Part shown: in pieces, positions 9,613 through 40,661 of the stretch
Layout of the letters: each line of letters begins with the position of its first letter
Numbering within the stretch: position 1 is the first letter of the stretch
Origin: Hyphochytrium catenoides
Lineage: Eukaryota; Sar; Hyphochytriomycetes; Hyphochytriales; Hyphochytriaceae
Reading direction: 5' to 3'
Length of the DNA stretch: 46,521 nt
Assembly: GCA_900088475.1 (NCBI GenBank)
Contig: FLMG01000350.1
Coordinates: 224,695-271,215, forward strand
Translations under genes and position numbers: made by a program
Notes under the pieces: model-generated
Told to the model about the DNA's origin: nothing
The model's input: the letters and a program-made list of their open reading frames with translations, nothing else
Databases searched by the model: none

Positions 9613-11742
9613 ATGAGACCACTCGACAACTCTGTCTTCAGAGCATTCTCTGGAATTTTTACCCTATGTTCCGTCTGTCTCTACCGCAAAATTTACGAGC
9701 TTCCGTTCATCCGTGACGAGCTGGCTCCTTATTTGTGCTTCCCAATCTTCTGGCGAGCTTCTGAAGTTAGAGTGCAGGCGCAGGCTCCAGGCCCCGTCAG
9801 AGATAAGATGATTATCTTGGCCTCGGCGCTAGTCATCCTGTCATCAGAGAGCTTGCGCACGGCGATTGAGCTGCTCTTCGCAGAGCTATCGGCGATGCTA
9901 GCGGAGAACTTCACGGCGGTGCTGGGAGGAATTATCCTCTGCAGCACTCTGCTGGGAACAATCCAGGTTCTGCCGCGCCCTTATGCTATGCCTAAAAGCG
10001 CCTCTATGCTTGGGTTGGCGAGCTCTGCGGGTGAGCTTAACGATTTACAGCCACGAGGAAGAGACAAACCACTAAAGCGATATTGCAGTTTTGCTTGCTC
10101 CTACGGTCTTGGCATTTCAGGAGATTGATGTCAACATGCTTCCAAACCTTGGAACTTTCAAGCTGAATTTGCCAGAGCACGTTACGGAGTGGCTAGACAA
10201 GGTGGACCGGTCTACCTGGTTGCTGCCATACTGGAACCACATGCTGGTGAGGCGGAAGAACGTTTGCCAGTTTTTTTAACAGTACACTCGAACTTAGCGG
10301 TGACACTCTCCTATGGGTCTTTGTGCTTCGCGAACCTCTTCTAATATCTTGCGGAGGACTCACGGGCTTGTCTTTCTCTCTCAGGACAACTTCACTGATT
10401 TTCAGATTATGTCACTGGGAACTTTCATACTCCATGAGCTCATCTACTTCAGCGCTTGGGTCCCCTACATCCTTATTGATCAAATTCCTGCCTTCAAGCG
10501 CTATAAAATTCAAGAGGTAGGCCTCTTCCCTACCAGCTATTCTCCCAATCCTTGAACAGCTCTACTACACAGGCCTTTCCTTGACCTCATTCTTCCCTTC
10601 GTCTCCTAGTCTTGACATTTGAAAGGTTCAACCTGGTTCTCTTGCCTTCTTTCTTCTCGCCTTCTCTGACCAGACTCATGTATGACCTTTCATAATCGCC
10701 CGGCAGAGGCGTCCCAATACTTGGAAGCAGACGTGGAAATGCCTCAAGCAGCTTGCCATCAGCCACACGCTCATTCAGTTCCCGATGATCCTTTTCACCA
10801 AGTGGGGTCTCCAACACCTCGGCTTTACTATGGATACCCCTTTGCCGCGCCTGTAAGGCAACACCACATGCTTGACATTAGGTCAAATCAGCGTCTGATC
10901 AAGTTGCCCTATTCTTTCGTGCTTGATCGCTCATCTTTAACTATACATGGTATCTCCTTTAGATCGGAGATCCTGCCTAAAGTGCTGGGCTGCTTCATCA
11001 TCGAAGACTTTTACTTCTATTGGCTCCATCGCTTCCTGCACTGGAAGAAAATCTACAAGTACATCCACAAAGGTAACCCCTCTCTGCTTTACCCTTCTGG
11101 TATCTCTTCACCTAACTTGTCGCGCAATGGTTACGCTGTAATGCCATCCCTTGCCTTGCACAGTGCACCACGAGCATGCAGCTCCGTTTGGCATTGCTGC
11201 AGAATATGCTCACCCGGTAGAGACTATGCTATTGGGAGTTGGCACGATTCTCGGTCCGTTATTCTTCACGCGACACTTGTTAACCTTGTGGGTGTGGCTT
11301 GCGTGCCGTCTCCTGGAGACGGTCGAGGACCACTCCGGTTATGAGCTTCCGTGGAACCCTTCCAACTTTTTTCCGTTCTGGGGAGGTAAGAGGACTGCTC
11401 GTGCAGCTTGGCCTTTGATGCCTAGGGGACTATGGACATTGACATCGATGTTTCTATAGGCTCCGTCCACCACGACTTCCACCATAAGAACTTTGAAGGG
11501 AACTACGCTTCGGTCTTTACTATCTGGGATCGTATCTTTGGCACCGACGTGGACTTCAGGGTGGACCAGGTACCGCATATAATCAGTCTTGCTCTATCGT
11601 GTCCATCGACATCACCGGTTAGTTGACTCGCGTTGTGATTGGACAGAGTGCCAAGAGGGCAGTGGGGAAGTCCATGTGGAAGGATGGGTTCGATAGGCTG
11701 AGCCTTGCCCCAGCTGTCGTTGTGTCAAAGAAGCAGCTATAG
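9613..11742 (+). CDS. MSMO1/ERG25-like: C4-methylsterol monooxygenase (sterol desaturase/fatty acid hydroxylase family)
   Basis: Eight exons: 9613-10030, 10089-10246, 10385-10516, 10707-10852, 10963-11072, 11164-11385, 11460-11569, 11647-11742 (463 aa). The C-terminal 300 residues follow ERG25/MSMO1 closely: [11 protein letters not shown], the KYKIQ-like box before the P-N-T-W segment, and all three iron-binding histidine boxes, H307-x3-H311, H320-K-V-H-H324 and H400-D-F-H-H404. [24 protein letters not shown] and [14 protein letters not shown] are also typical. The enzyme oxidises the C4 methyl groups of sterol precursors in the ER with O2 and electrons from cytochrome b5. Typical members are about 290-310 aa; this one has roughly 150 extra N-terminal residues with hydrophobic stretches, mostly from exon 1. 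The last codons (VSKKQL) lack a classical KKxx tail. It converges on the esterase gene, with 198 bp between stops. Confidence 0.93.
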
Positions 11743-11940
11743 CGCACAGAGTTCAAATTGTTCTTACTTACAAAGAGAAGTAAAGCGATCGCTATCTAGT
11801 GCACCAAGATAACGCTGGGGCCTCTCTCATTCTGACGGGAAGTGGTCGGCAAACACCATTAAGGGCAGGAGGAGGGATAGGTGACGTTAACAGAGCCGTG
11901 AGGAAGGATGGAGGAATGGTTCTAAGAAATAGCAGATCCC
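11743..11940. other. convergent 3' intergenic spacer
   Basis: Only 198 bp separate the stop codons of the sterol oxidase (+) and the esterase (-). It must carry both 3' ends, so the transcripts may overlap. No clear AATAAA was found. Confidence 0.5.
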
Positions 11941-14226
11941 TTAGAGCTTGGAGTTGACGTTCATCCTCGCCTCGAAAGTCTCGATGCGCTCCCTCAAGCT
12001 CTCCGAATTGTCATCTCCCGAGCTCACAGAGTCACGTTCTAGCTCATTCGCTTCAGAGCAGTACAAGTCCAAAAGGAATGAGACCGCGGCGTCGCCCAAC
12101 GCGAACGTTCTCGGTGATGGGACGCAGGCAAAGACATGATGGGTCCCTACAGAACGTGTCGCCTTAGTTTCATGTGCAATGCCACTGCAATGTAAAAGCA
12201 ACCAGGCATCTTCTCTGGCGCGATTGCAAGCCAAACCCACGATCTGGCTAGGTTTCGTCCCAAAAGCCAACCTTGAGTTGAAGCATTGTCCCTTTAAACA
12301 CTCTCTGTGTATCTCTGAGCTTGCCCATTGCCATATCGGGTTATTTTCCACCTCTTGAGTCCTTATCCTTTGCCCGTGGTTGTTGGCTGCACGGTTACCT
12401 CTGCTGCTATCTACGCGGGAATGCGCTTACCGGGTATCTCGATGTATACGTCCTTGACATGTATTTGTCCTGCCTCTTGCCGGGCTACCTTCAGTTGATA
12501 ATGAAACTCTCGAGAATCCTCCACGGGGACCAATGTGTCAAGAGCGCCGTGAACTGTCATAATAGGAGGAATTTTCTTTCGCTTGACCTCGGAGATTAAG
12601 GCAATTGGAGAGGCTGCATCAAACTCTTCCTTAGCACTGGAGAGTCGTTGTTGGATCACAAAGCGCTGGATAAACCTGAATGACCGACAGGAGGTAACAG
12701 GATTAGCGAGTAGCGAAAAGCAGGCTTCGTACAGATAAACAAAAGGTAGCGCTTGTGTTGGAAGCCTCAAGGTTGTTATCTGCCTCTTACTTGACGAAAC
12801 CGTCATTTAAACGCGAGGAATGGAAGCCATTCCTGTCTGCTAGATCGTGGACTCCGAATAGATCAATGCAGCCCTTGATCGTGGTGTCCACGTCCTCAAA
12901 GCCAGGCTAGGCAGATAGGAGAGGCGGTTGATAGATTAGAACGTGAGGAAATGACACAAAGATGGCAGTGGCAGACTGAAAGGTCTCGGAAACGCTGCAC
13001 TAAGTAGACGGCGCCCAACCTGATATATAGGGTTGTTAGCGCTGAAGGCCATCATGAGCGCCAAGTGGCCACCTGCTGACTCTCCTCCAGTCACGATAAA
13101 GTTAGGGTTCGCTGCAGATGAAGCAGGAGGGTCAGAATCATATTTGACACACTGAAGGGTCAGGAATGAAGGTATGCACTTTCATCTGAGGGAATTGGCT
13201 AGGCCATTACCTTGAAGCAGGGATTTGCCGTGTTGCCTAATGAAGGCGACAGCTCTCTTGCAATCAATCAACTGCGCGGGGTAACTAGAACGCGGTGCCA
13301 GACGATAGTCAATGGCGCACACTACCCAGCCCGCCCTTGCCACTTCGTAGAGGAAAGGGATCATGGCAAAACTGCGAGTGCCCACGACCCATCCTCCTCC
13401 TATAAGTAATGGAGTAAGCATCAGCTTCAATGTAGGCATAACTAGCATTATCCCTGACAGAAGCACTAGCAACGCCCGCTATGCGAGGGGATAGAGTAAC
13501 CCGGAACAGACAGATGAAGTTGTCCTTCGAGGCTCAGAAGAGGTATTAGATGACAAGACACAAGGGATGTAGGTACCGAAGAAGAGAACGTATCCGCACC
13601 GTGAATATAGAGCAAGACTGGGGCGTTCCGAGGGCAGTGTTTGGATTTGTACACATCCATCTTCAGTTGCACCTTTCCTACTGTGGCAAAGACCACACCT
13701 CGTCTAACAGTAACATCCTTCGACATTAGAGGATATAGCGGAACGAGACAGAGGAAGAGGCGGTAAAGGGAGAGAGAGCCAAGGTTGGCCAATGGCTGGA
13801 TTCCCGTCTGTGCCAGAGTGTCGCGGAAATACATCCTTGCTTGGAAGCTGTGGGTGAGGATATTCCAATATCTCGATGTAGATCTCACGGACAGCAAGAG
13901 CGCTAAGAGCCCAGGGATGCTGCCAATCGTGCTGGGATACTTTCGCAAGTAATGACCCAAAGCCAGTATATTGGCCAGGAGAAAGTAGTGGGACATCTCC
14001 GAGGGGATAAGCGATAACCACATGTCTACGAAGGTCTAAAAATAGGCAAGATAACGACGGTAGGGTGAGAATGGGCACAGGCGAGCGGGCATGGCCGGCA
14101 CACCTGTTTATGGGGGAGCCTGTGGCGAGCCAGCCAAGAAAGCTTCGTCATGGCGATCGTAAGAGCCAGAAAAATCCATGCCGGAGCCTTCTGGCCTAGC
14201 CTTCGAGTTATCATTGTTACCGGCAT
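11941..14226 (-). CDS. Membrane-anchored alpha/beta-hydrolase (esterase/lipase, HGGGW type)
   Basis: Seven exons on the minus strand: 14226-14104, 14035-13600, 13399-13211, 13111-13020, 12906-12791, 12675-12431, 12146-11941 (468 aa). The N-terminal 130 residues contain hydrophobic helices (around APAWIFLALTIAM and HYFLLANILALG), suggesting membrane anchoring. The catalytic domain has the oxyanion box H186-G-G-G-W rebuilt across an intron, V-C-A-I-D-Y-R-L-A-P, nucleophile elbow G259-E-S261-A-G-G, acid D365 in HGALDTLVP, and H403-H-V-F near the end. This is the complete Ser-Asp-His triad of the HSL/BD-FAE-like carboxylesterase group. Likely role: hydrolysis of lipid or short-chain esters; the substrate is unknown. 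The frame stays open upstream of 14226 to an acceptor-like site near 14430, so an extra 5' exon is possible. Last intron 12430-12147 is 284 nt. Confidence 0.87.
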
Positions 14227-14536
14227 CTTGAAGTTTCCCCCAAAAGCAGCAGCACTAGCAACTAATATTTGGAGGCCGGGAGGCTTGCTGATCAAATTCA
14301 GGAGGTTCCTACGGCGCCTCAGAGGCCTCCAGAGGTTAGTGAAGGCGAAGATTTTGCAGCGCCGCGCCGTCAGTGCTAAAGTTGAAGAGATCCGCAAGAA
14401 GATATTCGAAGAGAAGAACGCCGGGTTCTACAGAGGAGAAAGGGTAATTGTAAGAGGTGGTGATGATTCTTCCACTGTCATCTTAGGTGGCTGAGAATGA
14501 GGAAGGATTACTCGGAAACAGGACAATCCTCTCTTG

Positions 14537-14557
14537 CTCTCTCTCTCTCTCTCTCTC
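14537..14557. repeat. (CT)n microsatellite abutting the gap
   Basis: Twenty-one bases of pure CT alternation run directly into the Ns. The repeat probably caused the assembly break, and its real length is unknown. Confidence 0.9.
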
Positions 14558-14596
14558 NNNNNNNNNNNNNNNNNNNNNNNNNNNNNNNNNNNNNNN
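14558..14596. other. assembly gap (39 N)
   Basis: Run of 39 unknown bases. The length may be an estimate. Linkage between the esterase side and the alkB side depends on this scaffold join. Confidence 0.98.
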
Positions 14597-15627
14597 CCTC
14601 ACTCCCGCACCTTCAATCAGAGCAGAAGAGTGACCTCTGCAGCTCAGAAGGGACTAGACTCCGAAACGAGGTCCCTACCCTGAGGCCGCCCCCTTAGAAT
14701 CCTAAAGCTACTCCATTTACCTACACTCATAACGGGGGTAGAGTCCCCCACCCAACCCACCTTCATAACCTGCGAACACGCCCAATTCTTCTTCAACTTG
14801 GGGTTGGAAGCACCAATATTACGAATTAGCATGCGTTATGTGGCTTCTGTAAGGAATACGTTATGCTTGGCTGTCCTTATCCTTCATCTGAAGACTTTTG
14901 CTGTTGGGGCTACACCGTACCAGCGGCTCTGTCTGTGAAGAGCTTGTGTCCCTCTATGGTCCGTGATGTCCAAACACCCTTGCATTGACCCTCGAGAGAG
15001 GTTGGTGGGGACAGGTGCTGGTTCCGCAGTCCAATGGACATTGCAGATTGTTTCTACAACTGCAACTGAAGAGGTTTCAAGAGCTGACCTGGCTTCTGTT
15101 TGGTCGTTCTTCTGGCCGGGATGGTGGTGCGGGTGAGTAGTTCTAGTAGTTCCAATGGCAAGCAGATCTCTTCTTCACTTGAAGATGGATGGAGTTGATC
15201 CCACTGCTGCTTTGGTGGTTGTTGGCTGGGATGCTGGATGTCCAGCAGAAATAGTCAAATAGTGCATGACATTCGTCCGTCCCTTAGATTAAGATGGTTA
15301 GCGAGGAATGGCTGGAACAGATTGGCCTCAGGATCTTATTTGTGGCAAAATTAATGCTTTTACTACGTGTTGACTCACCTAGACCAAAGGAGTCGAATAC
15401 TGCTGGAGCAGATAACTCTAAGTAACTCCACTTCACCTGTGTTCAACTATTTATCAGAGAGCTAAGGTAGGGGTCATGGAAGAGGGATGGGACAATGATT
15501 TGTTATAGTGTGGATTGCCCACAGCTGGTATGTTACGAAAAATATGGATGAACTGAGCTAAGTTATGACTGAGAATGTGATGGTGGTTATCACAACCTAA
15601 CAGCAGTGATGATGGCCACTTCAAAGT

Positions 15628-16833
15628 CTAAGAGTGCTTTGCCATATCCTCCTCATTGAGGGTCTTACGTAGCGACTCCACCTGAGCAACGTGCGCATCG
15701 ACTAGGGGGTCCATAATTGCGAACCAGAGTGGAGGCACAAGCGCCAGAAGAGACATTCCTGCATAGCCAGTGGGAAGATTGGGAGACTCATCAAAAGACC
15801 GCAGAATTTGGTATCGCCGGTAAGGATACGCATGATGATCGGAGTGCCGCTGGAGTTTAAAGAGGAAGTAGTTCGTGATGCGCATATTGGCGTTCCAGGA
15901 ATGGATGGGACGGACCCGCTCCCATTGTCCGTTGGCAAGCTTGATCCTCTCAAGCCCATAGTGCTCCACGTAGTTAATAACCTCTAGAAGTGAAAAGCCG
16001 ATGAAGCTCTGGGCAAAGAAGAAGAGTCCAGCGGCTGGACCAAACGCTACGACGAGAGCAAGAGCAATGACAATAGGACCCACAGTGTACCCAATCATGG
16101 CATTATGATAGGGATGATAAGCAGACTTTCCGAGCTTCGCAAGACGCTTGAACTCGATGTTCCAGGCACTCATGTAGGAGCCAACCACCGATTGCTTCCA
16201 GAAGTTGTAGAAAGACTGGCCCTTTCGTGCAGTAGCTGGGTCATTGGGAGTCGCCACGTTCCAATGATGACCATGCACATGCTCAATTTGGAAGTGTGCG
16301 TATGAGGTGAACAGTAGCGTCAGCTTTGCTAAGAAAGGCTCCAAAGTGGTGCGCTTGTGCCCAAGTTCATGGGCGACATTGATGGCCAGACCAGAGCAGA
16401 TCCCGACACCTAGAAAAAGCCCAATTACCTCGGAAATAGTCATGGGAACTGTAGCCGCGTAGTAGCATCCGCCAAGGACGCAGGTGATATATGCAAGGGG
16501 CCATAGGCACGTTGCCACCTGATACCGCACCTGCTTCTCCAGCACCTTTGCCTGGTTGGGAGTCGGATTGAGCTCGAGGTGAGGGACGATAAAATCCAGG
16601 AGCGGAATGACCCCAAACGTCACGACGAGGGTTGAATAGTGCCATACTCCGCCTTCTACCATGCCCAGTGCAACAAAGCACGGAATAGTGTACACAAGGA
16701 GATAGGGGAGAAGGCTGAAATCATCCACACTTTTGGCATAGTTAGAGACAGTTGAAAACGGGGCCACGTAGGCTTTCTTCACAGCATCCTGCTGGGTCGT
16801 GGATGTTGCTATCGCCGTCGCCATCAGAACCAT
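15628..16833 (-). CDS. alkB-like: AlkB-type integral-membrane alkane 1-monooxygenase, intronless
   Basis: A single uninterrupted frame of 401 aa; Met1 is at 16833, with a second Met at residue 4. All diagnostic non-heme di-iron motifs of bacterial alkane hydroxylases are present: HELGH (155-159), EHVHGHH (184-190) followed by W-N-V-A-T-P-N-D-P-A-T-A-R, the AlkB signature NYVEHYGL (287-294) and LQRHSDHH (327-334) followed by A-Y-P-Y-R-R-Y-Q. Hydrophobic helices lie at about 42-60, 65-85, 105-128, 133-152 and 252-280. Length matches the bacterial family. The enzyme hydroxylates terminal carbons of medium-chain alkanes at a membrane, taking electrons from rubredoxin and rubredoxin reductase; neither partner is visible in this window. 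There is no obvious organelle presequence, although the first 35 residues are Ser/Thr rich. All flanking genes have introns and this one has none, which suggests acquisition from bacteria (inference). Confidence 0.96.
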   Translation of the reverse strand: MVLMATAIATSTTQQDAVKKAYVAPFSTVSNYAKSVDDFSLLPYLLVYTIPCFVALGMVEGGVWHYSTLVVTFGVIPLLDFIVPHLELNPTPNQAKVLEKQVRYQVATCLWPLAYITCVLGGCYYAATVPMTISEVIGLFLGVGICSGLAINVAHELGHKRTTLEPFLAKLTLLFTSYAHFQIEHVHGHHWNVATPNDPATARKGQSFYNFWKQSVVGSYMSAWNIEFKRLAKLGKSAYHPYHNAMIGYTVGPIVIALALVVAFGPAAGLFFFAQSFIGFSLLEVINYVEHYGLERIKLANGQWERVRPIHSWNANMRITNYFLFKLQRHSDHHAYPYRRYQILRSFDESPNLPTGYAGMSLLALVPPLWFAIMDPLVDAHVAQVESLRKTLNEEDMAKHS

Positions 16834-18203
16834 ACGCTCACCAGGCTTCAGGGCCTGTGGATGGATGTCTTATCGTGAGCGTGGTAAGTCTCGTTCTGCG
16901 GGGAAAGCGTAGTTGTAGCAACACCCTTAGGAGCTGTCAAATTGCCGTGCGGCATAGTAGAACTTTGGGGTGATTTTCCATGCTAACGAACCTCTTCCCA
17001 GCCTCTGTTTCTCACTCTCTTCTCTGTCTCCTTCTTCTACTCTCGAGCGTGAACTTGGCACTGGTAGTGCCGCCTCATCAGTAGAAAGAATAACAACTCC
17101 TCTTTGTATCTACTCCTTTGTTACGAGGACCTGCTGGGGCGGACCTCGACTTTTTCTCTCAATGCGCAGAATCCCCTTACCATGGACTCTCCCTTGCAAT
17201 GTTAGCGCTTCAGATAAAGAGACGGACCAAGTAGAACATCCTTCCTGACATCACCAATCCGCGACTCTCAAACAGGCAAGTAGTCCCCCATCGCGATGGG
17301 CTACATGCTCTAGAACTCTCGATGGCTAAAGTCTTACGACCACTGTCGCAATACGGCCAAGAGAATACCTTGTCATGGGCCAAACAAGCCATGTTATTTG
17401 GGATGCATTGGGCAGGGATAGAGTCCTGTAGTCAATAATAAAAAGATCCTTCTTATCTTTCTAGAAATAAGGTCTCTGGCCTGTGATTGGCTGGTGAGGG
17501 CAAGTTGCCTGTGACTAGTGTCAAGCTTGCCGCTTCCTGATTGGCCAAAGGACAAACAACAAATAATACGCCGAGACGAGCGCCGCTAAACTATCTACTG
17601 TGCAGTTCAGAGGGCACAGTAATAACACAACCTGTGACTGCCAGTGCTCCACAACCTCCTAGTGGTTCTCCCAATCACTAAGCTTGCCTATAGCCTTGCC
17701 TATAGTCGCAGCTTCATCATGATGATCCGCTGCGGGCCATTGAGAGTTGAACAACCGCTCAAAGAGCTCCAGGTGGCGCAATCGACTCTGTCTTCCCCTT
17801 TCTTCTCCTCCTACTTGTAAGTAGAAGTTCCTCTCTCACGAATACCGGCCTGGAACGTTAAACCAGCAGCCTACTTGCCCACCTTCATCTAGCCTTTGTA
17901 GTTCTAGCACATGACCAAAATCGGATGGCATAAAGTCTGATGTCGATCGAACAAAACTTTCATGTTCCAAGAAGCACACTGCTGAAACTCAGCGATGTCA
18001 GAGGTGCTTTCAGGTTCCATAATCTGAAACAAATTGCCCTGCGGTCCGCGCATTCAACCATGGGTCTAGTAAAGATCATGCCCAAGCTCGACGGGCAGTA
18101 GAGCTCCCCACAAGTGTAACAAAGCAAGACCTTTACACTGATTCATTGATTCATTGAAGAGACAGTCACCGTTCACACGTATCAGTCTTAGACTAGAAAA
18201 ATG
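16834..18203. other. alkB upstream region
   Basis: About 1.4 kb between glycerol kinase's 3' end and alkB's start. No gene was recognised. Two CCAAT elements in minus orientation (GATTGG at 17485-17490 and 17539-17544) and a short direct repeat (GCCTTGCCTATAG-like, 17684-17704) are visible. Whether they drive alkB is unknown. Confidence 0.35.
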
Positions 18204-20279
18204 CTAGTTTTGCCAGTTTAGGCTTCGCTCAACAGCGTCGTTCCATCTTTGATAGAGATGATCTCTTTCGGTAGAACTCATGAGTGGCTTGAATTCTCTG
18301 TCCTTTCTCCAGTTTTCCCGGAGCTGTACTCCATCTTTCCAGAAACCTACAGCCAGACCCGCTGCGTAGGCTGCTCCGAGCGCTGTAGTCTCCGCCACTT
18401 TCGGTCTGACGACGTTGACTCCAAGAATGTCCGCCTGAAATTGCATACACAAGGAGTTCGCTGTCATGCCACCGTCTACTTTCAGTGTGGTAAGTGCGAC
18501 ACCACTGTCTTCCTTCATCGCGTCTACTACCTCCCTCGCCTGATAGCACACAGCTTCAAGAGCTGCTCGACAAATATGGTTCTTGTTGGTGTAGGCTGTC
18601 ATCCCCACTAAGCATCCACGAGCATCCTGGCGCCAACGAGGAGCGAAGAGCCCAGCGAATGCGGGCACAAAGTACACTCCCCCATTATCTTTCACCGTCC
18701 TAGCAAACGCTTCCACCTGCGCGGCATTTGAGATGAGACCGAGGTTGTCGCGGAGCCACTGAATGAGAGAACCCGCCACAGCAATTGAGCCTTCAAGTGC
18801 GTATACACAAGGCAGATTTCCAATCTTGTACCCCACTATAGAGAAAAACAAGCCAAAGCAGTCATTTGTTAGGAGGTGAGGACTTAGCATGGCTGTCAAG
18901 CCAACAGGATTAATTTGTCACTCACCGGTGGTCAAGAGCCCATGCTTGCTGGGGACTATCGATGTCCCTGTGTTCAATATAAAGAAGCATCCAGTCCCGT
19001 AAGTATTCTTTCCCTCACCAGGAGTTAGGCACGTCTGCCCAAATAATGCCGCTTGCTGGTCACCAAGTATGCCAGAGATCTTGACCCCCAGCAGCCCAGA
19101 GTCTGGGCTGCCAAGGCCATAGATCTCGGATGAAGACAGAATCTTTGGTAGCATTTGTCGTGGGACCTTAAAGTTCTCCAGAAGCTCCGTGCACCAATCT
19201 AGAGTCTTCAAGTCCATTAATAAGGTACGGGAAGCGTTAGAGACATCTGTGGCATGGACACCGCCGTTTGGCCCGCCGGTGAGGTTCCATAAGAGCCACG
19301 AGTCGATTGTCCCAAAAAGGGCATGACCAGCCTCAGCAAGCTCCCGCAAGCCTTCAACGTTCTCCAGCAGCCATTTTAGCTTAAGTCCAGAGAAATAGAC
19401 CGAAAGTGGCAAGCCAGTGACTGCATAAATATCGCGTTGAGTCAGACAACTGCTCTACATATGGGCTGACGAGAACAACCAAGAAGCTAACTTACTTGAC
19501 CGGAATCTGCCAGCATCGTTACCAGGAAAGTGTGGACCCTCCCCCTCGCAGAACCTCTTGACGAGATCAGATGTACGGGTATCATGCCACACAATGGCAT
19601 TGTGAAGCGGCTGGCCGGTACGCTTATCCCAGACGACGGTTGTTTCTCTCTGATTGGTGATCCCACAAGCGGCCAGTCTATTGATAAAGGCAGCGAGGAA
19701 AGTATATTATGTCATGGACACGAGTTGGCAACGCCTAGCGCAGCCAGCTAGAACCTACCTATCGGCTGAAATGCCTATGTGAGCCAGCGCCTCCACGATA
19801 CAGGTTCTGGTATTGGCAAGGATCTCAAGGGGATCATGCTCACACCAGCCTGCCTGAGGGTAGATCTGGCCATGCTCCAACTGATGAGAGGAGCAGATCT
19901 CGCCTGCGTGATTGAAGACAATGAACCTTGTACTTGTGGTGCCTTGGTCTATAGCTCCCACATAGAATTGATCGTGCGCTTCAGTAGAAACCTTGCCGTT
20001 TTCTGTGGAATGCCTCGGTGCCGTCGTTTGAAGGATAAAGTCGGTCATGATGTTCCGTTTCCCAGAGAAAACTTGATATTGAAGTCGCGAGACTGGAGCA
20101 CTATTGCGCAAAGAGCCTGTCTTTGATGAGAGTTTTCTTTCGCAGGCCCCGGGGAGTTTAGAACTGAGATGTATCCTCCTCTGTGGCAACGCGCCAACAA
20201 CAGCCACTCGCTGAAATCTTATTGTGGCTCCACTATTGACTGTCCTGCTACAAGTCCAAGTCCGAACAAGGTAATGCAT
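18204..20279 (-). CDS. GK/glpK-like: Glycerol kinase (FGGY family) with N-terminal presequence
   Basis: Four exons: 20279-19759, 19677-19496, 19420-18926, 18835-18204 (609 aa from the first Met). FGGY motifs are complete: DQGTTSTR (111-118, phosphate loop), [83 protein letters not shown] and [19 protein letters not shown] with [14 protein letters not shown]. The enzyme makes glycerol-3-phosphate from glycerol and ATP, feeding glycolysis or glycerolipid synthesis. The catalytic part starts near residue 105. Ahead of it lie about 77 residues rich in Arg, Ser and Leu with almost no acidic residues, resembling a mitochondrial transit peptide; the internal Met78 (20048) would give a 532-aa form near the usual family length. 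Introns are 81, 75 and 90 nt. Same strand as alkB. Confidence 0.95.
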
Positions 20280-22517
20280 CAGCTAAGGCCGAAGACTCCT
20301 AATAATGCCGTTATGGGCTAATGGTAAGGTGGTTGACAACTAACCTGTCCGCATATGAATAGCACTTCAAACACAGTCAGCGATTGCCTTCAGACACAGG
20401 CTAACGATCATCCAACTTCCCTCCTCCTTGTCATCAGAATCTCTCTGTCATCCACGCAGTCTTCATCCCTGCTGCTGTTGGTATTTGCCGATGAAGATGG
20501 CGGAGTTGAAGCTTGGGATCTTCTACAGACAAGTCAACGCTTCAAGCTTTCCCCGCTCGTACACGTACAACGTTCAGGGGCTTGGCTGCGATAGTGAGTG
20601 TGGTACCGATGTGTGTTTGTTCAGAGCTGGCTTAACCGCCGCTAATTTATTCATCAAACACAGTATGATGGGCTTATGAAGTGGTGCGTTAGCAGACAAG
20701 ACAGTTCGTGAGCGTACGGTCACTCTGGACGCAGATTAGGCAATAGCCGGTAACGGTTATATATGGGCAATTCCCAGTCCTAGTGGTTCTGGCTGTACGC
20801 CGTGTACTGGGAGTTCCTGATAGGGAGACAATCATCTCGTCCAAAAGCAGGCAAAAGACTGACAAACGCTTGTCAACAGAAGAGGCAAGCCTTTCCACAT
20901 TCTTCTACTCCTAGGGGCCTTGTTATCGTACTGCTCATGGACGGGAAAGTAGTAGTAAAAACGTGTGAGTCCTTCGTACCTTTCCTAAGGCTTGTACAGT
21001 ACTCGGAGCTGTGTATAATAATCTCATGCCCAAAATACTCAACACCATCGAGCAGCGTCTAATCCTTGACCAAATCTACCTCGAGTTCTTGGAGGAGAAA
21101 GGACCACCCACCTCTTCTCTCCAGCAACAATGAAGTGGACGTGTACACTGAGAGATAGCAGCACTGGCATAGGAGCATTTGACCTCCTCCCGAACTGCTG
21201 CTGTCTCCCAGCGAGGAAGCACAGCACTTGTATGTCCTGTTGTTCTTCCCAAACCCTCCTCCTTCTCTTTCCATTCCTGGCCCAATACGTACAGGTAGAA
21301 GACAGGGTCATCTCAGGGTTGTGGTGGGCAAAACAAAGCCCATGGTCTCATCAAGACTTCTGCTTCTGAAAGAGGGGGAGCTGCCTGGTTGGTGGGAGGA
21401 GAAATAACGGCCAAAGATCATCCCCTTCTTCCTTCTCCTGTCTCGTTCTTTGCTTCTTACGAGTACCAAAGAATCTCATCACCACCAGCACCCCATCTCC
21501 GTCCGTTACTTGTACAGCCATCATCAGCCCTTCCCCTGTACTGTAGACTTCCTAGCGTGCTGGGTACCCTTGCTGTGTACGAGTAGCTATAATAGCACAG
21601 GAAGTCTTCTTCCTTCGTTGTCACCAGTCTCACAATCATCGATGCTGGTTCCTTTCCTGTCTCTTCCACTGTGGGTTTAGTGATTTCCAACATCGTAACG
21701 CGTGCGCACGTCAGCCCCCCTTAGCAGCACAGAAATGAGAAGGTACCATTGTAGCATCATGTCGCTAGCCGCTCGACAGCGGCAGTGCGAGTCTTGCTGC
21801 TTGCAGTCTATCTCTCGGGTGGCAAGAGACAGAAGAACCAAAGTGATAGGCAGAAAGCCACCAGCATGGTCAGCGGTTACTTGTTTTACCTCGTCTTACG
21901 TTCATAGGAGCATTTCTAGACATCAATGCGCAACCGTTCACCGGCTTCCACTCAGCGAGGCATCCACTCGGCGAACAAATTACTGCCAGATTATTTCCCT
22001 TGAGTCTCTTCATCTGACTGAGCAAGAGGTGCAAGAGTAAGGAGCAGGGAGACAAGGACGACTGAAGTCGAGGACGAGAATCTAGCCATCATCTTCTGTG
22101 GGCCTACCCAATGGCACAAGAGACCAACAGGCTCACTCTTATAAAGGTTACGTGCTGAACAGACTTATAAAAAGTTGTGGCCAAACGCTACGTGGTGGCT
22201 GCACAATGATAGGAGATCTGCAGGACCGCGCCGGGGCCGCCCCTTGTAGATGTAGCTTGGTGGCGGGAACTATTCAGAAGGCTGGGAAGATCCTAATGAT
22301 TGGAGTTATTCTCAGCGCTAGCATTGCATCAGTCATCTACGGAGTATGTCATCTGGAGCTCTCTCTCACATATTATACCTTCAGAGATTTGACCAAAGGA
22401 TGTCAATCCCTTTCAGCTATCATTCAAGCTTCCAACCTCGATGCGTTTCTTTGTTTTACAAATACTCTTTCTTATCCAATACACCTTTCTTATATCTGAT
22501 GTTCCACATCCTTCGTT
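20280..22517. other. intergenic between divergent genes
   Basis: About 2.2 kb between glycerol kinase (-) and the 4-TM hydrolase-like gene (+). Weak candidates only: a frame from ATG 20494 to a GTGAGT donor near 20594, and a frame from ATG 22207 to a GTATGT donor at about 22343 that has a hydrophobic helix and could be a 5' exon of the next gene. Neither can be confirmed. Confidence 0.35.
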
Positions 22518-29246: not shown

Positions 29247-31593
29247 ATGGTGCAATATAGCCCAGAGCAGCTGCTTAATGCGCTAAAGGCGCTACAGGAC
29301 ATGAAGCGGTGTGACAAGGACTATGCTGACATCGCGGGGTACCTGACCTGGATATCGGCTGGCTGGTAAGCCGTTCAGGCCTGTCAAAATGTCCCGACAA
29401 CTGGCACTCATGAACCTTGTGTTATCTCTTCCAGCGCGCTGACCTTTACACTGATTCGCCTTACCAATCCCACACTGCGGCAGTTTCCAGACAACCTTAT
29501 CACAATCTATGGGTAGGAAGGCGTCGTCAATAATTGCTCGTTTTGTGTGAGGGTCAATGCCCCGGCCTAGTCTGCAAGCTCTAGGAGCCAATCTCTCTCT
29601 AACCTTGCCTGCTTTCTGACGCTTAGCTAACGCTGAATGATGACTGCAGGTTCCAGGCATTTCTTTGGAATGCCAATTACGGTCTGACCTTCTTGACAGA
29701 AAAGCGGATCATGACTCCAGACTTCAAAGGCCTTTGCGTCCTACAGGGCATGGGCTTTCAATTTGTGGGCATGAGCTGCATCATCTCATGGTTCATAATT
29801 CTACTCATTATGTACCAGGTATTATGGTTGATACCGAGTACATGCAAGCTTCTTTGTTCGCTAATCCCCACGGTTTCTTGTCGCCGCACAGATTATAGTG
29901 CGCCAGCAGAGTATGTCCACCTTGCGAGATCGGGCCAACTACTATTACTTTGCGAACTGGTCCGTCCCCGTCGTTACCACCGTCGGTCTATGGGCAACCG
30001 ATAACTTTGGTCCATTGCCAGCAGCAATGGTTTGCTTCGTTCCGACAGAGAAAATCCTGTTGCGGTACGCACATTGAACTCTCCGTGTCAAACTAGAGCT
30101 TCTTAACAAACTCTTTTTTTGCAGGTTCTGTGTGCTTTACTGCTTTTATCCCATCTGCTTCTTCGGAGCCATCTACTTTGTGGTGCGCATGGTCATGGTT
30201 TTGCAGGGCGCCGGTTGGAGCCGTGCTGCGGACGAGCACTGTAGGCTAGTTTCAAAGACCTATATCATCCAAGTCCTAGGCTTCACGGTGTACCTCTGGT
30301 GGTTTATGATTGTTGCCTGGGTATACGGCTTCAACAGCATGATCTTTGAGTACTGGCCCGAGCATCTTGACTATGTGGCCAACACCTCCTACAATTACTG
30401 CTCCGCCACAGCTGTCAGCCTCGCCGTTATTGGGGTAGGTGTTAGTCGTCACGACTCTTCTCGTCTGAAAGGTCGCTTCATCTTCGTGATAGGTATCCTC
30501 CCATGGATACACCTTCTGAGCCGCACCATTCATAAGTGGTTCTTTCATCCTTCTTCCTGCCCTTTCATATTGTACTGACCCAGCCTGTCTTGCTGCATGT
30601 GAAACCTCTCTTTCTAGACCATCGTCACGATAGTCTTTGGATTCAACGTGGCATCCTGTAAGTCCGCCACCAGGAAGGCAAGGAAGGCATTCACAACCAC
30701 TGCATCAAAGTTCTCTACAGGGGTAAGATGGACGCATATCAGGACGACGGTCCTAGAAGGACTTCCACTTAAGTCTTAGTTACTGACTGTCACCCTTCTT
30801 ACTGTCCTTGTTCCTTATTATCGTCATGGGTAATATAGCAATCGAGACCTGAGGACAAGGACATGGAAGCTGGCGAGTTGGCTACAAAGTATCCAATCAC
30901 CGCTATTCCAGACGAGGAGATCGATGATGAGGATCGGTCGACCCAGGGAGGGCTCAGCACTCCTTCGTCGATGATCCCTAAGAGCCAGAGTCAGTTTGGA
31001 GACGATGAGATTGAAGGTGGGGGATCATACGTCGGTGTCATCTCCCCAGCTCCAGATTCGTCTGGTGCCATCCAGACCCCATCCTCCAACAGGGGTAGTC
31101 TAGCGTCGCTGAAGTCAACCGAAGGTTAGATTACTTGTTTCAGGATTCACGCTTTAGTCAGCAGCCTGACCTCTTTTTTCCTGTTTCTTGTGCTTGATGC
31201 TCTGTGTTTTCTACGTTATGACCAAATAGTAACAAGAGACAAAGCCCGCCGAAGAGCATCCGCCGCTGATAGACGGGTAAGCTAAATAGTCTATTGTAAG
31301 GATCGTGCGTGCGTTTATCTCACTGATAGCTGTTCCTTGATCCAGGTCATCATTAGCTACGCTCGAGAGGCCTTAGGAAGGGAAAAGCTCTTCGTTACGC
31401 CAGATCGGCTGGACGAGCTTATTGACAGCTGTTTGGGTCACAGATCGTCTGTCCTACACCTGACCCCTGTGGAGACTGTCGCGTACAGGGTAAGTGACTA
31501 CTTGTGTCGCTTTTTTTCCAGTGATTAGCAAGTCTAATGTCAGTGCTACAGCTTATTCAGGACTCGATAGCGCGATATGAGGCCGGACAGTAA
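29247..31593 (+). CDS. cAMP-receptor-like 7TM protein, paralogue A
   Basis: Ten exons: 29247-29365, 29435-29512, 29650-29818, 29892-30064, 30125-30434, 30618-30722, 30839-31124, 31230-31276, 31346-31489, 31552-31593 (490 aa). Seven hydrophobic helices can be placed: YLTWISAGCALTFTLIRL; NLITIYG through NYGLTF; GLCVLQG through LLIMYQ; FANWSVPVVTTVGLW; FCVLYCFYPICFFGAIYFVV; VLGFTVYLWWFMIVAWVYGF; CSATAVSLAVIG through VFGFN. The short extracellular N-terminus and T-N-P-x-L-R-Q-F-P loop after helix 1 recall Dictyostelium cAMP receptor-like GPCRs; this is a resemblance, not a proven match. After helix 7 come a Lys/Arg/Thr patch and about 200 cytosolic residues rich in Ser, Asp and Pro, ending in a conserved helical segment (VIISYAREALGREKLFVTP). 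It probably signals through G proteins; the ligand is unknown. It converges on the aminotransferase gene. Confidence 0.8.
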
Positions 31594-38211: not shown

Positions 38212-40661
38212 ATGGTGAAATATACGCCGGAACAGTTGGGTAACGCGCTAAAGGCGCTTCAGGATATCAAACAGTGTGACAAGGACTATGGCGACATCGC
38301 GGGGTACCTGACGTGGATATCGGCAGGCTGGTAGGCGCCTCTGATGACCAACAATTACTCTTGAACAGAAGCTGATGAATCTCACATCGTCCTTTGGGAA
38401 CTACTAGTGCGCTGACATTTACTCTGACTCGGCTCACGAACCCAACCCTGCGGCAGTTTCCCGATAATCTTATCACAATTTATGGGTAAAGAGGCGCCGC
38501 TGAGTTGCTCATCATCAGTGTTTTCTATATTCTGCATACTGTCCAGCGCTCTTCACCCTAGTAACACTCCTTCAATCCCTCGCGCTTTTTTTAATTGAGT
38601 CTGATTTGTCTGCTGGGTTGGCCGGTCGGCTAATCTCTGGTGACTTTATGTAGACTGCAATCGTTCCTCTGGAACGCTAATCTTGGTCTGACCTTCTTGA
38701 CTGAAAAGCGGATCATGACTCCAGACTTCAAGGGCCTTTGCGTCCTGCAGGGCATGCTTTTTCAGTTAGTCGGCATGAGCTGCATCATCTCATGGTTCAT
38801 AATTTTACTCATTATGTACCAGGTAATGTCTATGATACTTCTTGTAGGCAAGGCTTCCATCTTCGCTGACTACCATCCGCGCCGCGTGGCTGTTACGTCA
38901 CAGATTATAGTGCGCCAGCAGAGCATGTCCACGTTGCGAGAAACTGCCAACTATTATTACTTTGCCAACTGGTCCATCCCCGTCGTTACCACCGTCGGTC
39001 TATGGGCAACCGATAACTTTGGTCCATTGCCAGCGGCAATGGTTTGCTTCGTTCCGACGGAGAAAATTTTGCTGCGGTAGAAACTCCGTTGAACTCTTCG
39101 TGTCCCTCGTAGCTAGAACTTATCATTCATACTTTTTTTGCAGGTTCTGTGTGCTTTACTGCTTTTATCCCATCTGCTTCTTCGGAGCCATCTACTTTGT
39201 GGTGCGCATGATCATGATCTTGCAGGGGGCGGGATGGAGCCGTGCTGCGGACGAGCACTGTAGGCTGGTATCCAAGACCTATATCACTCAAGTTCTAGGC
39301 TTCACGGTCTACCATTGGTGGTTTATGATTGTTGCCTGGGTATACGGCTTCAACAGCATGATCTTTGAGTACTGGCCCGAGCATCTTGACTATGTGGCTA
39401 AGACCTCCTACAATTACTGTTCTGCCACGGCTATCAGCCTCGCTCTTATCGGGGTAGGTCGCCCTCTTTTGATAATAGTTCGGTCACTTCTCTTCCGCCT
39501 AAAAAGTGACTGTTGGTTCAGCGGGTACAGCGGGATAATGCTCTGTCAAAGACTTCTTCCGTCTCCTCTTAGTGACGGTGGATCTCTAAGATCTCTTTAT
39601 CTCACCCCTTAATTTTCCTCACGTCAGACCATTATCACGATAGTATTTGGATTCAACGTCGCATCATGCAGATCTGCTACCAGAAAGGCAAAAAAGGCTT
39701 TCACCTCTACTGTCTCCAAGCGGTCAACTGGGGTAAGTGTCACTTTAGGTCTAGAGTCCGTGAGGACCCTCATCTTGGACTTCCTGATCTCTGATTTTGG
39801 TTCTCGCTCACCTCGCCGCTCTCCCTTCTTGTTGTCATCGTTTTCAATAATATCATCAGCCCTCAAGGCCCGATGGGGACAGAGATATGGAAAGTGGCGA
39901 GCTGGTCACAAAGTATCCAATCACTGCCATTCCGGACGAGGACGGTGAAGACGATGATCGATCAACGGAAGGAGAGCTGAGCACTCCGTCGTCAATGATC
40001 CCTAAGAGCCAGAGCCAGTTTGGGGATGACGAAGTTCACGGTGAAGACTCTTACGTGGGTTTCATCTCCCCAGCCCCCGACTCCTCGGGAGGAGCCGCCG
40101 TTCAGACACCACCTTCACACAGGGGTAGTCTAGCTTCGCTGAAGTCAACAGAAGGTCAGACCCATTTGTTTAGCGTTGGTCTTTTTGTGTTTATCAGCGA
40201 GCTGATGATCTTCATTCGGAACCCTATTAACTGGCCTATTATTGCTCTACTTTCTCTACTCGACCCATAGGAACTAGGGATAAAGATAAGTCTCGCCGGC
40301 GAAACGCATCCGCGGCTGATAGAAGGGTAACTTTTTGTTCTTCATCATCATCGTCATCATGGTGTCTTTAGCTATTTGGTTGATCTTGTTTGTCTATCCA
40401 GGTCATCATTAGCTATGCCCGGGAATCACTAGGAAGAGAAAAGCTTTTCGTTACCCCGAAGCGTCTGGATGAGCTTGTTGACAGCTGTTTGGGTCACAGA
40501 TCGTCTGTCCTCAAGCTGACCCCTGTTGAAACTGTCGCGTATAGAGTAAGTTTTTATTACGGTGTGTCATTTTTTATGTTGTTAGTCCTCTGCCATTCTA
40601 ATGTCGTTGGTGCTTATAGCTTATTCAAGACTCGATAGCCCGATATGAAGCTGGACAATAA
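38212..40661 (+). CDS. cAMP-receptor-like 7TM protein, paralogue B
   Basis: Ten exons: 38212-38330, 38408-38485, 38654-38822, 38904-39076, 39144-39453, 39628-39732, 39860-40154, 40271-40326, 40402-40545, 40620-40661 (496 aa). It is a close paralogue of the gene at 29247. Eight of ten exons have identical lengths and every intron has the same phase; only exons 7 and 8 differ (295 versus 286 and 56 versus 47 nt). The seven helices and loops are nearly the same; differences are mostly at the very N-terminus, helices 2-3 and the acidic cytosolic tail (GEDDDRSTEGELS and an extra Gly-Ala-Ala-Val). Both tails end in the shared LIQDSIARYEAGQ. Ligand and G-protein partner are unknown. Introns diverged far more than exons, as expected for an older duplication with coding constraint. 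Confidence 0.8.

What the first reader, a model, noticed from the sequence alone, without database searches (positions are those of the whole stretch)
15628..16833. Complete intronless bacterial-type alkane monooxygenase in an intron-rich eukaryotic locus
All four AlkB histidine signatures are intact in a 401-residue frame with no intron, while the neighbouring esterase (7 exons), glycerol kinase (4 exons) and sterol oxidase (8 exons) are all split. Typical eukaryotic alkane oxidation uses P450s such as CYP52, so a working AlkB here would mean a transferred alkane-degrading ability. It would also raise the question of which rubredoxin-like donor feeds it.
Basis: partly seen in the sequence, partly recalled or inferred. 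Interest (0 to 1): 0.82.

Follow-up and report, generated by a model that had tools for sequence, protein, structure and literature searches.

The report
Protist membrane alkane hydroxylase gene
A single-celled eukaryote carries an intact, intron-free gene for a bacterial-style enzyme that puts oxygen on the end of oily alkane chains; its closest relatives are in other protists, so it looks like part of a little-noticed eukaryotic family rather than a one-off gift from a bacterium.

Summary
Minus strand 15628-16833 is an uninterrupted 401-aa frame with the nine AlkB histidine ligands and active-site glutamate. It matches both solved AlkB structures in sequence (1.4e-88, 4.2e-78) and predicted fold (TM 0.81, 0.79). 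One copy was found in the 42.5-Mb assembly. No gap separates it from a split glycerol kinase 1.4 kb away, so it is a nuclear gene. Mitochondrial cox1 points to a stramenopile; psbA and light-harvesting searches found nothing.

The interpretation needs correcting. Three of its four best database hits are eukaryotic. In an 81-row tree, 11 of 12 eukaryotic rows plus 6 unassigned metagenomic rows form one branch (90/97, just short of the tool's star). Placing the window outside the other 16 fits worse (p-AU 0.033, post hoc). This looks like a member of an old, patchy eukaryotic AlkB lineage, not a private recent transfer. The tree is unrooted, so bacterial origin is inferred.

Likely job: terminal hydroxylation of long-chain alkanes or alkyl lipids. 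No rubredoxin was detected, but that search is weak. The electron donor and the true substrate remain open.

The parts
15628..16833 (-). AlkB-family membrane diiron monooxygenase, 401 aa, no intron
   Evidence: Open frame; PF00487; PDB 8f6t/8sbb; AlphaFold2 pLDDT 83.4 and Foldseek TM 0.81/0.79; catalytic residues
18204..20282 (-). Glycerol kinase in separate pieces with introns, upstream neighbour on the same strand and without a sequence gap to AlkB; anchors AlkB in the nuclear genome
   Evidence: FGGY_N and FGGY_C pieces; frames and intron edges
14558..14596 (.). 39-N assembly gap, on the far side of AlkB from glycerol kinase
   Evidence: Only N run in the window
12411..13472 (-). Split alpha/beta-hydrolase (esterase-like) gene, at least two pieces; context only
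   Evidence: PF20434 positions 20-83 in 13182-13472 and 163-215 in 12411-12806, the second piece below the family cut-off

Best explanation
A nuclear gene of a probably non-photosynthetic stramenopile encodes an AlkB-family membrane diiron monooxygenase that belongs to a patchily distributed eukaryotic AlkB lineage of, most likely, ultimately bacterial ancestry. It probably draws a long alkyl chain from the membrane through a hydrophobic tunnel, activates O2 at a nine-histidine diiron centre and hydroxylates the terminal carbon; the alcohol would feed fatty-acid oxidation. Shown here: intact motifs, predicted AlkB fold, nuclear context, grouping with eukaryotic AlkBs. Inferred: activity, long-chain preference, catabolic use, electron donor, direction of the original transfer.
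For: Catalytic residues conserved in 77 of 77 counted rows. AlkB structures rank first by sequence and fold. Contiguous with split glycerol kinase on a 271-kb contig. Best hit 52% identity to a eukaryotic protein; 3 of the top 4 hits eukaryotic. 17-row branch with 11 of 12 eukaryotic rows at 90/97; FastTree of 236 rows gives a 19-row branch with the same 11 at 93. Window outside the other 16: 45.3 log units worse, p-AU 0.033. Gate residue Thr72 instead of Trp.
Against: Branch support 90/97 is below the tool's starred level. Six of the 17 rows are metagenomic and of unknown origin, so they may be bacterial. Several eukaryotic rows are transcriptome sequences that could include contaminants. P0251/P0253 fall elsewhere, though one clade is not rejected (p-AU 0.436). 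The AU test was framed after seeing the tree. Small gate residues are also usual in the bacterial rows, and Thr is not among the residues the paper names, so chain length is a weak inference. No expression or activity data.
Confidence: 0.65

Rival explanations
1. Same eukaryotic AlkB-lineage enzyme, but its natural substrate is not an alkane: it hydroxylates the end of an alkyl lipid (fatty acid, ester or other membrane lipid) in biosynthesis or remodelling.
For: Lipid-related neighbours; the tunnel fixes alkyl chains, not alkane identity; no alkane pathway was demonstrated in this genome.
Against: Substrate-contacting Leu and catalytic residues are those of alkane-active AlkB.
Confidence: 0.2
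2. Recent, lineage-private transfer from a bacterium.
For: No intron; bacterial AlkBs are widespread; all but a few of the 120 listed hits are metagenomic or bacterial.
Against: Nearest rows by tree path are eukaryotic or unassigned; window outside the branch p-AU 0.033; no compositional contrast with flanks.
Confidence: 0.1
3. Bacterial contaminant joined into the assembly.
For: An N gap 1 kb away; no intron.
Against: The gap is on the other side; AlkB is continuous with a split glycerol kinase on a 271-kb contig.
Confidence: 0.02

Closest known systems
FtAlkB / AlkB-AlkG of Fontimonas thermophila (PDB 8f6t, 8sbb)
   Same: Nine histidine ligands, active-site Glu, key Leu, overall fold
   Different: No fused rubredoxin in the 401-aa protein; of the six rubredoxin-facing Arg the window has R, P, H, K, Q, R; N-terminal extension modelled with low confidence
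Eukaryotic AlkB homologues in EukProt (P0001; 'Clim' P0002/P0004, recalled as Corallochytrium; 'Opistho-2' P0008, recalled as Pigoraptor; 'Nk52' P0246, recalled as Chromosphaera; 'Rmarinus' P0060, recalled as Rhodelphis; 'Cafeter...' P0037)
   Same: Nearest by score or tree; P0001, P0002 and P0004 share an N-terminal stretch ending in DF before the first membrane helix
   Different: 43-50% identity over the alignment; gene structures not seen
Membrane fatty acid desaturases (PF00487)
   Same: Same Pfam family, histidine-rich diiron type
   Different: AlkB-specific NYxEHYGL and LQRHSDHH stretches; no desaturase title among the 50 Foldseek rows listed

Membership tests
AlkB alkane monooxygenase | Nine histidine ligands in four motifs plus active-site Glu | tested here: met
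   His 155, 159, 185, 189, 190, 291, 330, 333, 334 and Glu290 present in 77 of 77 counted rows including the window (four rows left out)
AlkB alkane monooxygenase | AlkB fold | tested here: met
   Model pLDDT 83.4; TM 0.81 to 8f6t and 0.79 to 8sbb, next hit 0.40
AlkB alkane monooxygenase | Rubredoxin as electron donor | tested here: inconclusive
   No PF00301 match at 1e-3; one sub-threshold match that is not a rubredoxin. The search works exon by exon and the Fer2 search found only one match, so absence is weak. Docking patch partly kept
AlkB alkane monooxygenase | Terminal hydroxylation of alkanes | not testable with these tools
   No activity data; key Leu positions kept
Eukaryotic AlkB lineage (as drawn here) | Groups with eukaryotic homologues apart from the sampled bacteria | tested here: met
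   17-row branch 90/97 and 9-row sub-branch 96/94; p-AU 0.033 against the window outside; six unassigned rows inside the branch

The most novel reading that the evidence does not exclude
A eukaryote-wide AlkB lineage, either very old or spread between protists, has moved away from rubredoxin to a eukaryotic carrier such as cytochrome b5, making overlooked heterotrophic protists direct consumers of biogenic long-chain alkanes.
Probability: 0.2. Interest if true: 0.8.

Novelty: new member of a known kind. Interest (0 to 1): 0.48.

Why it matters
Alkane hydroxylation in eukaryotes is usually credited to P450s (recalled). An intact AlkB in a heterotrophic stramenopile, related to AlkBs in unicellular opisthokonts and a rhodelphid (names recalled), suggests a second eukaryotic route. 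It makes two questions testable: whether protists consume biogenic hydrocarbons directly, and which electron carrier can feed an AlkB in a eukaryotic membrane.

Tried and rejected
Contaminant join: rejected. Recent private bacterial transfer: disfavoured. Photosynthetic host: no psbA or light-harvesting match. Leucomyxa plasmidifera as host, from a search listing: judged unlikely because 94 curated nuclear transcripts there average 60.7% GC (passages of PMC11528492) while the window's 1-kb blocks are 46-53% GC. Sub-threshold rubredoxin hit: the frame shows a WACPRCTLENS..C..C zinc-finger-like pattern (RanBP2 type, recalled), not a rubredoxin. Loss of the rubredoxin patch as proof of a donor switch: not significant against the 30 nearest bacterial rows (p 0.097), and the branch also has fewer Lys/Arg overall (26.7 against 29.3 and 28.8 in the aligned core). 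One clade for all eukaryotic rows including P0251/P0253: neither shown nor rejected. Species name: not reached. Papers: ten keyword searches were made; two searches were on other questions. In the listings shown (capped, for example 20 of 4,217 and 15 of 46) no title or abstract start described a eukaryotic alkane-hydroxylase AlkB; the texts were not opened to check, except passages of PMC10113152, PMC10110569, PMC10176705 and PMC11528492. The library holds open-licence papers only.

Full report
Observation. The frame lies on the minus strand at 15628-16833, 401 codons plus stop; the plus strand there contains stops. It matches FA_desaturase PF00487 at 4.3e-32, no NCBIfam model up to E 1, and in the PDB only two sequences at E <= 0.001, both AlkB: 8f6t at 1.4e-88 and 8sbb at 4.2e-78. 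AlphaFold2 on an 11-sequence alignment gave pLDDT 83.4 and pTM 0.83, with residues 1-23 below 50. Foldseek put 8f6t and 8sbb first at TM 0.81 and 0.79; the next hit has TM 0.40.

Context. The assembly has 42.5 Mb in 1105 contigs and the window is C799:224695-271215; one match to the protein was found, and the contig is 271,215 bases long. The adjacent glycerol kinase is in separate pieces with stop-containing stretches between them, the last intron running from GTGAGT to TATAG, and there is no N between it and AlkB. Composition does not stand out: GC is 0.48-0.52 in the 1-kb blocks from 14001 to 18000; GC3 is 0.59 for AlkB against 0.53 for a piece of glycerol kinase that includes about 25 intron bases. 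The cox1 frame reads with the standard code. psbA and light-harvesting families gave no match. The host is therefore probably a heterotrophic stramenopile; it was not named.

Relatives. Two protein searches, with the protein and with a 7-row profile, each scored 8000 candidates, found 7577 and 7543 below 1e-3 and listed 120. Eleven listed AlkB rows carry a EukProt source; with the window that makes 12 eukaryotic rows. Three of the top four hits are eukaryotic, the best at 52% identity. FastTree on 236 rows put 11 of the 12 eukaryotic rows in a 19-row branch, support 93, with 8 metagenomic rows. From those 236 I chose 81 rows (12 eukaryotic, 9 unassigned, 60 others); IQ-TREE recovered the same 11 in a 17-row branch at 90/97 with 6 unassigned rows. 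The window is in a 9-row sub-branch at 96/94 beside P0001 (83/86), with P0003 and the two 'Clim' proteins next. The grouping statistic of that display, comparing eukaryotic with unassigned rows only, needed 7 changes, as many as shuffles: the unassigned rows are mixed among the eukaryotic ones. P0251 with P0253 falls elsewhere, but one clade is not rejected (p-AU 0.436). Holding the other 16 together without the window costs 45.3 log units, p-AU 0.033, framed after seeing the tree. The two labelled stramenopiles, the window and Cafeteria P0037, are not sisters. Old presence with many losses or transfer between protists would both fit. The tree is unrooted; bacterial origin is inferred.

Mechanism. 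FtAlkB residues from passages of PMC10113152 and PMC10110569 were mapped by hand through the alignment, with an offset of three that fits Arg143, Arg148, His141 and Glu271. The nine histidines, Glu290, Leu283 and Leu327 are present in 77 of 77 rows counted and Leu324 in 76 of 77; P0251, P0253, P0087 and P0088 were left out. At the gate position where Trp goes with chains of 5-12 carbons, the window has Thr72; the paper names Ala, Val, Leu and Ile as the long-chain residues, and the bacterial rows also mostly carry small residues there, so the long-chain prediction is weak. At the six rubredoxin-facing arginines the window has R161, P166, H187, K233, Q303 and R306. The branch averages 2.35 Lys/Arg of 6, against 3.48 in 60 other rows (p 0.0017) and 2.87 in the 30 nearest (p 0.097), uncorrected for kinship; Lys/Arg is also lower overall. 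Lys326, just before the last histidine motif, is in 17 of 17 branch rows; 17% of the 60 others have Lys or Arg there.

Electron donor. Rubredoxin PF00301 gave nothing at 1e-3 and one false lead at E 0.8. Cytochrome b5 PF00173 gave 10 matches. The Fer2 search returned one match, in a frame that reads like xanthine dehydrogenase (recalled), and not the mitochondrial ferredoxin such an organism should have. Exon-level absence of a protein of about 50 residues therefore means little.

Novelty. A member of the AlkB family, in a eukaryotic lineage whose sequences already sit in public sets. The paper listings I saw gave no account of it, within an open-licence library and capped lists. The finding is real and of moderate interest; an organism-specific recent transfer is not supported.

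Noticed in passing
window 30078-30578 and 38911-39612, + strand: Two frames share a long near-identical membrane-protein stretch (FCRFCVLYCFYPICFFGAIYFVVRM...WVYGFNSMIFEYWPEHLDYV); no Pfam match for either. Probably a local duplicated gene family.
   Followed up: partly
window 10670-20282: Lipid-related genes lie close together: a weak FA_hydroxylase match, an alpha/beta hydrolase, AlkB and glycerol kinase. May be chance.
   Followed up: no
L002 and L003 (G000 C402 and C1105): cox1 occurs on two contigs with the same score, and the cox2 frame upstream of it in L003 has a long, low-complexity C-terminal extension.
   Followed up: no
L089-L168 (IMG/VR contigs): 196 of 255 viral-collection stretches encode AlkB relatives; 80 were kept, the first nine at 38-41% and the rest at 26-32% identity to the window. 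Not checked for being truly viral.
   Followed up: no
P0251 and P0253: AlkB homologues of 645 and 639 aa, one from EukProt, with long C-terminal extensions that match no Pfam family.
   Followed up: partly
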